From the NCBI RefSeq assembly GCF_013407165.1, contig NZ_CP026994.1, forward strand, positions 1,268,187-1,332,186: a stretch of DNA of 64,000 nt. The letters run 5' to 3'. The position numbers were made by a program, and so were the translations under genes. Positions 20,209-22,680 of this stretch are shown here, piece by piece; the stretch's first letter is position 1, and every line of letters begins with the position of its first letter. Under the pieces are notes generated by a model. That model saw nothing but the letters and a program-made list of their open reading frames with translations. It was not told the DNA's origin and did not search any database. Source of the DNA: Nitrosopumilus oxyclinae. Its GTDB lineage: Archaea > Thermoproteota > Nitrososphaeria > Nitrososphaerales > Nitrosopumilaceae.

Positions 20209-20726
20209 ATCTAATAATTACTTGTCCTAGGCACCTTGAACCAGAAACGGAAGAAGAATTAATCGATATTTTAGGAGAATTAGGGGATTCTGATGTCAAG
20301 ATTACAATTACCAACATGTCAGGAATATTGACTGCCGAAACAAAACTTGATCCCATAGAAGTTGTAAGGAAAATTAAAGAAATGCTTCTAGATGAACCAT
20401 GGAGTGTAAGGTATTGTAAAAGAATCATTCCAATACAGAAAGTTATTGAATCAAAAATTGAAGAAATTGAAAAAAGTGTTGCAGAATTATCAAATCAAAT
20501 TTTAGATGAGGAAACATATAGAATATCAATTGAAAAAAGAAATTCAGATTTATCAAGTAAAGAGATTATCACAAAAATTGCTAACAATATAAAAAACAAA
20601 GTCTCTCTAGAATTCCCAGATAAAGTTCTATTAATTGAAATTTTAGGCAATAAAACAGGAGTGTCTATCCTAAAAAAATCAGATATTCTAAGTACAGAGA
20701 AAACTAAGCGAAGTATGTCAGAGTAA
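20205..20726 (+). CDS. THUMP-domain protein (Tan1-like)
   Basis: The 173 residues start with LIITCPRHLEPETEEELIDIL and contain DPIEVVRKIKEMLLDEP and later YRISIEKRNSDLSSKEIITKIANNI, the pattern of the archaeal THUMP proteins related to Tan1, which bind tRNA and support N4-acetylcytidine formation in eukaryotes. No catalytic domain is attached, so it is probably an adaptor. It is translationally coupled to tsaC (ATGA), supporting a role in tRNA modification, and its end overlaps the convergent Cgi121 fusion. Confidence 0.82.
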   Translation: MNLIITCPRHLEPETEEELIDILGELGDSDVKITITNMSGILTAETKLDPIEVVRKIKEMLLDEPWSVRYCKRIIPIQKVIESKIEEIEKSVAELSNQILDEETYRISIEKRNSDLSSKEIITKIANNIKNKVSLEFPDKVLLIEILGNKTGVSILKKSDILSTEKTKRSMSE

Positions 20727-21491
20727 TACAGCAGCTTTTTCAACTAAAATATCTGCCAAAGGATTTTTTGAAATAATTGAATCAGTATGTTTTGTTGTTA
20801 TTTTAAATCGTTTTTTTAGAAAAGATTCATTATTTTTTGAAAACATTGGAATTGATATTGACTTTAATTCAAGATGTAGTGAATTTAGAGTTTTTTTATT
20901 TCCAATTGCAATAATTGTAAAATTTGTATTAGGTTTTATTCCAACATTTTTAATTGCATCAGAAATTTGTGTAGTTAAAGCAAATCTCATTAAAATATCA
21001 GTTTCAAGTTTGTTTGAAAGTAAAATATTATTTTTTTCAGATTCAATAGACAAAGAAACAATTTTTTTTAAATGATAGTTGTTTAGAATATAATTACTAG
21101 ATACGGCCTGAATTATAATTTTAGGATATTTTTTTCTTATGTTATCGATGAATTTCATATCAATTGTTTTTTGACCTTTAATTTCGATAGCATAGATTAT
21201 TTTTTTAGAAAATTCAAAATTTATTTTTTTTGATGCTCCTCCATGAATTACAGGGATAATACTTACAAGATCATTTTCTTTTATTATTGTAGATTTTCCA
21301 TCCATTGCAGAAGAATCAGCACCATTAATTGCAATCAATACATTATCAGTGTCAAGTTCAGGTGTGTCTGCAGGTTTTAGTTTTAATAATAAATTGATCA
21401 ATTCCTGAATGCTCAGATTAGATTGTTCAATTTTCAATTGTTCTATTGGAAAAGATTTTTTTGCACCACCTACAAATTTTACAGTAAACAT
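20718..21491 (-). CDS. Ubiquitin-like (MoaD/ThiS/SAMP) domain fused to KEOPS subunit Cgi121
   Basis: Residues 1-85 form a beta-grasp ubiquitin-like domain: VLIAINGADSSAMDGKST then LVSIIPVIHGG is the classical MoaD/ThiS/SAMP ending, with the diglycine at residues 84-85 lying inside the chain instead of at the C-terminus. Residues about 92-257 match Cgi121: KIIIQAVSSNYILNNYHL, then MRFALTTQISDAIKNVGI and NFTIIAIGN. Cgi121 helps KEOPS make t6A in tRNA. The fusion joins sulfur-carrier/protein-modifier chemistry to a tRNA-modification subunit. It converges on tsaC and the THUMP gene. Whether it is cleaved after Gly-Gly is unknown. Confidence 0.82.
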   Translation of the reverse strand: MFTVKFVGGAKKSFPIEQLKIEQSNLSIQELINLLLKLKPADTPELDTDNVLIAINGADSSAMDGKSTIIKENDLVSIIPVIHGGASKKINFEFSKKIIYAIEIKGQKTIDMKFIDNIRKKYPKIIIQAVSSNYILNNYHLKKIVSLSIESEKNNILLSNKLETDILMRFALTTQISDAIKNVGIKPNTNFTIIAIGNKKTLNSLHLELKSISIPMFSKNNESFLKKRFKITTKHTDSIISKNPLADILVEKAAVLL

Positions 21492-21530: not shown

Positions 21531-21893
21531 TTATTCTGTTTTTTCTTCAGCAGTCTCAGAAGGTATTTCTTCAGGAGTTGATTCAACTACTGTCTCTGTT
21601 GCTTCAACAGTTTCTACTCCTTCTACCACAACATCTTCAGTCATTTCTATTTCAGATTTTTCTTCTGCTTGTTGTTCAGCTTTTGATGCTGTAATTCTAG
21701 CCTGTTTGGCTTTTTCTTCACGAACTTCTTTTTTAATAAATTTAGTAATATAACCTGCAATTTCATTTTTCAAACCTTTAGAACGTACAATAGATACTTG
21801 ATCTAAGGCTTTTTTATTATCTGCAAAATCTTCACCAAATTTGGTTTTGTGATCTACTAGAACTTCATATGAAAGTCGCTTTATTCTATCCAC
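21531..21893 (-). CDS. rps17e: 30S ribosomal protein S17e with acidic C-terminal tail
   Basis: A small-subunit protein found in archaea and eukaryotes. The core (MDRIKRLSYEVLVDHKTKFG, then DQVSIVRSKGLKNEIAGYITKFIKK) is complete in about 65 residues; a further 55-residue E/T/V-rich acidic tail follows, which typical archaeal S17e lacks. The frame opens to 21935, but the TATA box TATTTTATA at 21915-21923 lies inside that extension, and the GTG at 21893 is 26 bp downstream of it and matches the usual N-terminus, so a leaderless GTG start is chosen. Confidence 0.9.
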   Translation of the reverse strand: MDRIKRLSYEVLVDHKTKFGEDFADNKKALDQVSIVRSKGLKNEIAGYITKFIKKEVREEKAKQARITASKAEQQAEEKSEIEMTEDVVVEGVETVEATETVVESTPEEIPSETAEEKTE

Positions 21894-21914
21894 TAATCGA
21901 TTACATGAGGGGGG

Positions 21915-21923
21915 TATTTTATA
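21915..21923 (-). promoter_or_regulatory. TATA box of rps17e
   Basis: TATAAAATA on the minus strand, centred 26 bp before the GTG at 21893. It overlaps the 3' end of the upstream tatD frame, so S17e can be transcribed separately from within that gene. Confidence 0.65.
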
Positions 21924-21924
21924 C

Positions 21925-22680
21925 CTATATTCCAAGAAATGAGTTTGAATTTGATTCTAACAAGGTTGCCATATCATCAAAAGATTTACCTAAAATTTTT
22001 GAAGCACAAAAAATCACACTAGGTATAAAGCTGATTTGTCCGGATTTCATATCAAAACATCTAGAAAATCTCACAGGCCCATCGGTTTCAACAAGGATTT
22101 GAGATTCATCAGTTTTTGACAATAAAGTTTGCTTATCATTTGCATAAATCATTACTGGTCCAAAAGATACAAAAAATCCCATGTCCATGGCTTTTTGAAG
22201 TTGTTTTTTACTTCCATCAAACCAATGCAATAATGCATGTTTTGTATCATACGAAGTCATAATTTCAAAAACATCATCAAGACTTTTTCTTGAATGGATG
22301 GATACAGGTTTGTTGAATTTTTCAGCAAATGATAATAATGTTTCAAATACATTATTTTGTTTTATTGCATCTTCATTTTTGGTAACATAAGTTGGATCTA
22401 ATCCAATTTCACCTATCCCAGAAATATGATCATGATTATCTTCAATTAATTTGGAAATATTTTCTAGTTCTTCATTTGCACATTCAGGATGAATTCCTAT
22501 GAATGGTAAAATTAGATTGCTTTTTTTAGCAAGTTCTAATGTCTGTATTGAATTATTGTAATCCATAGACACACAACATGCTTTAATTTTTAAAAATTCC
22601 ATTTGTTTTAAGATAAATTCCATATCAGAAACATATTCTGGATCAGACAAATGTATGTGAGAATCAAAATACCAAGTCAT
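21925..22680 (-). CDS. TatD-family metal-dependent hydrolase
   Basis: A TIM-barrel metalloenzyme of the TatD DNase family. The metal ligands appear in order: DSHIHLSD (HxH), SGIGEIGLD (Glu), KPVSIHSRKS (His), ALLHWFDGS (His) and LVETDGPV (Asp). At 251 residues it is of normal length. TatD proteins show 3'-5' exonuclease activity, but the physiological role in archaea is open. The gene ends within the promoter of rps17e. Confidence 0.87.
   Translation of the reverse strand: MTWYFDSHIHLSDPEYVSDMEFILKQMEFLKIKACCVSMDYNNSIQTLELAKKSNLILPFIGIHPECANEELENISKLIEDNHDHISGIGEIGLDPTYVTKNEDAIKQNNVFETLLSFAEKFNKPVSIHSRKSLDDVFEIMTSYDTKHALLHWFDGSKKQLQKAMDMGFFVSFGPVMIYANDKQTLLSKTDESQILVETDGPVRFSRCFDMKSGQISFIPSVIFCASKILGKSFDDMATLLESNSNSFLGI

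What the first reader, a model, noticed from the sequence alone, without database searches (positions are those of the whole stretch)
20718..21491. Ubiquitin-like domain fused to KEOPS subunit Cgi121, with an internal diglycine
Residues 1-85 end in the MoaD/ThiS/SAMP pattern LVSIIPVIHGG, yet Gly84-Gly85 is followed by a full Cgi121 domain. Ubiquitin-like precursors in eukaryotes are cut after such a Gly-Gly, so the protein may be processed to release a modifier, or the modifier may be held in cis with the tRNA-modifying complex. The neighbours tsaC and THUMP add to a tRNA-modification context. The domains are seen in sequence; processing is inference. The fusion may be known in related genomes.
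Basis: partly seen in the sequence, partly recalled or inferred. Interest (0 to 1): 0.82.

Follow-up and report, generated by a model that had tools for sequence, protein, structure and literature searches.

The report
Ubiquitin-like modifier fused to Cgi121
In marine ammonia-oxidising archaea a small ubiquitin-like protein is made joined to a part of a tRNA-modifying complex, and the cutting signal between the two is the best-preserved spot in the whole protein, so the pair is probably made as one chain and cut apart, although nobody has yet shown the cut.

Summary
ORF 20718-21491(-), 257 aa, has an N-terminal Urm1/MoaD-type β-grasp domain ending H83-G84-G85 and a C-terminal KEOPS Cgi121 domain. 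Profiles, PDB sequence search, an AlphaFold model and Foldseek agree. The fusion itself was published in 2010 (Makarova & Koonin, PMC2948915). New here:

(1) HGG is the only run of three invariant residues, 82/82 GG-bearing fusions, with all four Gly codons in use, beside one of the most variable stretches.
(2) The Ubl gene ends at or within a few residues of HGG and sits directly upstream of cgi121 in about 20 families. Fusion occurred in Nitrosopumilaceae, one genus of a related family (f3) and one further family. Two re-splits fall at the junction.
(3) The host genome has one E1, only two detected Ubls (both internal-GG fusions: Ubl-Cgi121, Ubl-E1), two JAMM proteases with intact motifs, and NcsA.
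(4) JAMM is found in 159/161 genomes of the order. In JAMM-less G310 both Ubls are separate genes ending exactly at GG. The one GG-less fusion (G311) has no detected JAMM.

Best explanation: a pro-protein cut by JAMM after Gly85, releasing a Urm1-like modifier/sulfur carrier and Cgi121. JAMM cleavage is proven for SAMP1-MoaE, not for this fusion.

The parts
20718..21491 (-). Ubl-Cgi121 fusion gene, 257 aa
   Evidence: open frame; Pfam/NCBIfam matches; AlphaFold2 and Foldseek
21237..21491 (-). residues 1-85: Urm1-like ubiquitin-like (beta-grasp) domain
   Evidence: PF02597 aa 5-85 E 3.8e-8; family profile matches Urm1 2k9x 1.9e-6 and 4wwm 1.8e-5; Foldseek 2k9x, 6yuc
21237..21245 (-). His83-Gly84-Gly85, predicted cleavage/activation motif (cut after Gly85)
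   Evidence: invariant in 82 of 82 GG-bearing fusions, all four Gly codons used, only run of three invariant residues; C-terminus or near C-terminus of the unfused Ubl genes
21204..21236 (-). residues 86-96: variable stretch after the GG; AF2 shows coil at 81-88 and the first Cgi121 strand at 89-94
   Evidence: mean entropy 2.24 bits, highest of the segments compared; pLDDT mean 70 at 81-90; both natural re-splits lie here
20721..21236 (-). residues 86-257: KEOPS subunit Cgi121 domain
   Evidence: PF08617 8.4e-7, NF011465 7.5e-46; Gln175-Ile176 align with tRNA CCA-binding Gln71-Ile72 of M. jannaschii Cgi121 and are invariant
21531..21935 (-). ribosomal protein S17e, upstream neighbour on the same strand (39 bp gap)
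   Evidence: PF00833 2.5e-17; gap; same order in f2 and f3 genomes
21925..22680 (-). TatD-family hydrolase, upstream of S17e
   Evidence: PF01026 2.4e-49; order kept in L055 and L060
20205..20726 (+). THUMP-domain protein, convergent neighbour
   Evidence: PF02926 8.8e-9; convergent order kept in L055, L057-L059
19573..20208 (+). TsaC/Sua5 threonylcarbamoyl-AMP synthase (t6A pathway)
   Evidence: TIGR00057 4e-52, PF01300 2e-54; also next to the cluster in f2 genomes L057-L059

Best explanation
The gene encodes a pro-protein: a Urm1-like ubiquitin-fold sulfur carrier/modifier joined head to tail to the KEOPS subunit Cgi121. A JAMM metalloprotease (two are encoded) most likely cuts after Gly85. 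That frees a Ubl with a C-terminal HGG that the single E1 can adenylate, for tRNA U34 thiolation through NcsA and/or protein conjugation, and it frees Cgi121 to join KEOPS for t6A37 synthesis. Fusion replaces an ancient, closely spaced gene pair and fixes equal output of a U34-thiolation carrier and an A37-modification subunit. Shown here: domains, HGG constraint, gene-pair ancestry, repeated fusion and fission, parts list. Inferred: the cut, the protease, and what the freed Ubl does.
For: HGG invariant in 82/82 GG-bearing fusions with synonymous codons saturated, next to the variable segment 86-96. Unfused Ubls end at or near HGG directly upstream of cgi121 in about 20 families. The tree needs at least 8 state changes (at least 4 forced by strongly supported branches), so the state changed repeatedly. 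Two re-splits in Nitrosopumilaceae lie just after HGG. Own genome: one E1; only two detected ThiS-fold Ubls, both internal-GG fusions; two JAMM proteins similar to PfJAMM1 and AfJAMM with HSHP...PSxxD motifs; NcsA-family protein. JAMM in 159/161 genomes of the order. JAMM-less G310 has both Ubls as separate genes ending exactly in GG, and the GG-less fusion G311 has no detected JAMM. Flexible inter-domain linker. Precedents: HvJAMM1 cuts linear SAMP1-MoaE after Gly-Gly and this activates it in vivo (PMC4443979); DRJAMM cuts MoaD-MoaE (PMC8832034); CsJAMM cuts SAMP precursors (PMC6043591).
Against: No protein-level evidence of cleavage. JAMM also occurs where the Ubl is unfused and can serve to remove conjugates, so its presence is not specific. 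The JAMM/GG concordance rests on a few related or incomplete genomes (G311 is 82% complete). PMC8832034, citing Hepowit 2012, says the GG of SAMP1 is not strictly required for HvJAMM1 to cut linear fusions, so GG conservation may reflect use by E1 rather than the cut.
Confidence: 0.62

Rival explanations
1. The Ubl stays attached for good. It serves as a docking domain of KEOPS, recruiting E1 or NcsA to tRNA already held by Cgi121, so that U34 and A37 of the same anticodon loop are modified together. HGG is kept for docking in an E1-like groove.
For: Long-term gene pairing and repeated fusion; fusion G311 lost GG yet keeps both domains; in G310 another Ubl without GG is fused to the t6A methylthiotransferase, so permanent Ubl-tRNA-enzyme fusions exist.
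Against: An internal GG cannot be adenylated, and docking alone gives no reason for strict HGG identity. The two permanent-looking fusions have lost GG. No free-GG Ubl would then remain in this genome for its E1.
Confidence: 0.2
2. Regulated partial processing: the uncut fusion is an active KEOPS form that links t6A synthesis to the sulfur or conjugation state, and JAMM cutting switches it.
For: SAMP1-MoaE linkage inactivates MPT synthase and JAMM reactivates it (PMC4443979); Makarova & Koonin suggested KEOPS regulation by SAMPylation.
Against: The same families work with two separate genes, and re-splits are tolerated, so a regulated uncut form is not generally needed.
Confidence: 0.1
3. Internal translation initiation after HGG makes free Cgi121; the fusion is a by-product of coupled translation.
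For: Unfused genes overlap or are separated by a few bases; start codons lie near the junction in 29 of 82 fusions.
Against: 53 of 82 fusions have no ATG/GTG/TTG in that interval and only 10 have ATG. It would not free the Ubl C-terminus, so HGG invariance is unexplained.
Confidence: 0.05
4. [quoted passage not shown]
For: HGG was the ancestral C-terminus, so it pre-dates the fusion.
Against: All four Gly codons are used at both sites without one amino-acid change in 82 fusions, although fusions in the alignment are only 27-87% identical to this one; the adjacent linker has diverged freely.
Confidence: 0.03

Closest known systems
Thaumarchaeal Ubl-Cgi121 fusion of Makarova & Koonin 2010 (PMC2948915)
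   Same: Same fusion, next to S17, in Nitrosopumilus and relatives.
   Different: Passages read there do not discuss the internal GG of this fusion or its cutting. It was called conserved in all Thaumarchaea; here it is split in f2 and most f3 genera, and fused again in genus g163 and in f67.
MoaD-MoaE / SAMP1-MoaE linear fusions cut by JAMM (HvJAMM1, DRJAMM)
   Same: N-terminal Ubl with internal GG, C-terminal partner enzyme, JAMM in the genome.
   Different: Partner is a KEOPS subunit, not MoaE; the Ubl is Urm1-like (HGG), not MoaD-like; cutting is unproven.
Archaeal Urm1 (Sulfolobus/Saccharolobus) and eukaryotic Urm1
   Same: HGG end, beta-grasp fold; Sulfolobales Urm1 also neighbours S17.
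   Different: Stand-alone protein there; Sulfolobales are reported to lack Cgi121.
Caldiarchaeum ubiquitin and SAMP precursors (CsRpn11, CsJAMM)
   Same: Modifier made as a precursor extended past GG and trimmed by a JAMM-type protease.
   Different: Short tail, not a whole functional protein domain.
Eukaryotic ubiquitin-ribosomal protein fusions (general knowledge)
   Same: Modifier fused N-terminally to a translation-related protein, released after GG.
   Different: Cut by deubiquitinases; the partner is a ribosomal protein.

Membership tests
Urm1 (archaeal/eukaryotic) | beta-grasp fold | tested here: met
   PF02597 above cut-off; Foldseek best Ubl match 2k9x Urm1, also 6yuc. Pfam Urm1 itself is below cut-off (17.7 vs 21.8 bits).
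Urm1 (archaeal/eukaryotic) | C-terminal His-Gly-Gly | tested here: inconclusive
   HGG present and invariant, but internal in the encoded chain; terminal or near-terminal in unfused relatives.
Urm1 (archaeal/eukaryotic) | cognate E1-like activating enzyme in the genome | tested here: met
   one ThiF/UbaA-type E1, 251.7 bits; cognate activity not tested.
Urm1 (archaeal/eukaryotic) | thiocarboxylation and/or lysine conjugation | not testable with these tools
   needs biochemistry.
KEOPS subunit Cgi121 | Cgi121 fold and profile | tested here: met
   PF08617 and NF011465 above cut-off; Foldseek 4ww7 3.9e-9.
KEOPS subunit Cgi121 | CCA-tail binding residues (Met60, Gln71, Ile72 of M. jannaschii) | tested here: met
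   Gln71-Ile72 align with invariant Gln175-Ile176; the Met60 position is Thr164. Two of the three residues are kept.
KEOPS subunit Cgi121 | binding to Bud32 | not testable with these tools
   needs biochemistry.
JAMM-processed Ubl-partner fusion | GG at the domain junction in a flexible linker | tested here: met
JAMM-processed Ubl-partner fusion | JAMM protease with intact metal-binding motif in the same genome | tested here: met
   two, HSHPQSDAYPSNTD and HSHPSGSAEPSVTD
JAMM-processed Ubl-partner fusion | absence of JAMM goes with free-ended Ubl or loss of GG | tested here: inconclusive
   fits in G310, G328 and G311, but few and related or incomplete genomes
JAMM-processed Ubl-partner fusion | cleavage exactly after the second Gly | not testable with these tools
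   needs mass spectrometry.

The most novel reading that the evidence does not exclude
In Nitrosopumilaceae the detected ubiquitin-like modifiers are made as inactive N-terminal fusions to their own pathway partners (Cgi121, the E1 itself, in some MoaE), and one or two JAMM proteases are the obligatory gate that starts sulfur transfer and conjugation, tying U34 thiolation and A37 threonylcarbamoylation to one cut.
Probability: 0.4. Interest if true: 0.8.

Novelty: new member of a known kind. Interest (0 to 1): 0.6.

Why it matters
If right, a dominant group of marine archaea makes its ubiquitin-like modifiers only as fusions that must be cut to work, and couples two anticodon-loop modifications through one gene product. 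This parallels ubiquitin's own synthesis as a fusion with ribosomal proteins, and gives a JAMM protease an essential job in making a modifier rather than only removing it. It is directly testable with existing proteomes. It also corrects the published view that the fusion is general in Thaumarchaeota.

Tried and rejected
Assembly or reading-frame artefact: rejected, 82 distinct fusions. Misread of a MoaD: the fused Ubl carries HGG and matches Urm1 structures; the genome's MoaD/SAMP1-like Ubl is the one fused to E1. Fusion universal in Thaumarchaeota: rejected. JAMM presence as a specific marker of fusion: rejected, it is nearly universal in the order. Internal translation start: not conserved. 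G311's GG loss as a frameshift: the three frames at the junction show no hidden HGG. Kae1, Bud32 and Pcc1 were not searched for. Deep branches of the tree are weakly supported and long branches meet, so the exact number of fusions is uncertain.

Full report
Observation. The ORF at 20718-21491 on the minus strand is real. Pfam and NCBIfam place a ThiS/MoaD-type domain at residues 5-85 and a Cgi121 domain behind it. A profile of 60 fusions reaches Urm1 structures (2k9x, 4wwm) and Cgi121 structures (1zd0, 2k8y, 8up5) in the PDB. AlphaFold2 gives two well-formed domains, with residues 81-90 as the least certain block, and Foldseek finds KEOPS Cgi121 and Urm1 as the two fold matches. In M. jannaschii Cgi121 the CCA tail of tRNA is bound with Met60, Gln71 and Ile72. 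Gln71-Ile72 align with Gln175-Ile176, which do not vary; Met60 aligns with Thr164.

Prior knowledge. The fusion is not new. Makarova & Koonin (PMC2948915) reported it as conserved in all thaumarchaeal genomes then known, noted S17 next to it, and also noted a Ubl-E1 fusion. They suggested KEOPS regulation by SAMPylation. In the passages read they do not discuss the internal GG of this fusion. Only that paper in the held library contains both 'Cgi121' and 'sampylation'.

Constraint on the diglycine. In 82 GG-bearing fusions His-Gly-Gly never varies, while the Gly codons are GGA, GGT, GGC and GGG at both sites. In a thinned set of 60 sequences (27-87% identity to the window protein) it is the only run of three invariant residues. 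The segment just after it (86-96) has the highest mean entropy of the segments compared, 2.24 bits. The residue after GG is Ala, Ser or Thr in 67 of 82. This is the pattern of a short functional motif at a domain boundary.

History. Outside Nitrosopumilaceae (f1) the Ubl is usually a separate gene that ends at HGG, or within a few residues of it, directly upstream of cgi121. This holds in f2, f3, f11, f32, f56-f62, f64-f66 and f68; in f30 and f63 a Ubl-phosphoribosyltransferase gene sits directly upstream of cgi121. In f3 genome L055 the order TatD - S17e - Ubl - Cgi121 is the same as in the window. A tree of both domains needs at least eight state changes, of which strongly supported branches force four. 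Fusion is found in f1, in genus g163 of f3 (8 fused, 3 split) and in f67. Two f1 genomes are split again: G061 by a TGA right after HGGA, and G464 by a frame change with the Ubl ending HGGGKNKRKL. Both breaks fall within about ten residues after HGG, as expected if free Ubl and free Cgi121 are the working forms.

Parts list of the genome. There is one E1. ThiS and MoaD profiles find only two Ubls, this one and the one fused in front of the E1. The Ubl-E1 junction is PAVAGG, followed by Ser or Ala, in the fused sequences whose junction is displayed; one relative (L184) is split there. So no Ubl detected in this genome has a free diglycine end as encoded. Two JAMM proteins with intact motifs are present, one like PfJAMM1 and one like AfJAMM. 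An NcsA-family thiolase is present, although it is below the curated NcsA cut-off.

JAMM concordance. JAMM is present in 159 of 161 genomes of the order at 95% completeness or more. The two without it belong to f66, and three further f66 genomes and f67 genome G311 lack it too. In f66 genome G310 both Ubls are separate genes ending exactly at GG: HGG followed by cgi121, and AVSGG followed by E1. In G328 the second Ubl likewise ends AVSGG. G311 has a Ubl-Cgi121 fusion in which HGG is replaced by HCS. This is what obligatory JAMM cutting predicts, but the genomes are few and G311 is 82% complete.

Mechanism. Direct precedents exist. HvJAMM1 cuts linear SAMP1-MoaE precisely after Gly-Gly, and the cut is needed for activity in vivo (PMC4443979). 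DRJAMM does so for MoaD-MoaE (PMC8832034). CsJAMM trims SAMP precursors (PMC6043591). In Haloferax, SAMP2, UbaA and NcsA serve U34 thiolation of tRNA-Lys (PMC4048286). I therefore propose a pro-protein cut after Gly85. Steps shown: domains, HGG constraint, gene-pair ancestry, repeated fusion and fission, parts list. Steps inferred: cutting, which JAMM does it, activation by the Ubl-E1, and use in thiolation or conjugation. The main rival is a permanent docking domain, for which HGG invariance has no clear reason.

Novelty. The architecture is known since 2010 and the proposed mechanism is of a known kind, so I rate it a new member of a known kind. The interest lies in the strength of the HGG constraint and in the possibility that this family encodes its modifiers only as fusions to be cut.

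Noticed in passing
G000:C1:1381352-1382683(-) (L002:445-1776): The only E1 of the genome carries its own N-terminal SAMP1/MoaD-like domain with internal PAVAGG; the junction motif recurs in fused relatives of f1, f2, f3 and f56.
   Followed up: yes
L202:1030-2553(-) (genome G310): A ubiquitin-like domain that has lost its GG is fused to the t6A-specific tRNA methylthiotransferase (TIGR01578, 442 bits, cut-off 315) in a genome without a detected JAMM: another Ubl link to the t6A pathway.
   Followed up: partly
L121:561-1400(+), L173:1394-2308(+), L174:1504-2424(+): In families f30 and f63 the HGG ubiquitin-like domain is fused to a phosphoribosyltransferase-like domain (Pfam match in L121 and L174; L173 is L174's neighbour in the tree), GG internal, directly upstream of cgi121.
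   Followed up: partly
L166, L167, L168 (family f16): Ubiquitin-like domain with internal AGG in a 180-aa protein; L166 has a MraZ-like match behind it.
   Followed up: no
L205:1092-1763(-) (genome G499): A third Ubl in this Nitrosopumilaceae genome is a MoaD-MoaE fusion with internal VSGG.
   Followed up: partly
L060 (genome G209): The Ubl after S17e is followed by a KH-domain-like protein (own reading, no profile run) instead of Cgi121, which lies elsewhere on the chromosome.
   Followed up: no
window 21531-21935(-): S17e carries a long acidic C-terminal tail rich in Glu and Thr; relatives in f2 and f3 have tails of other lengths.
   Followed up: no
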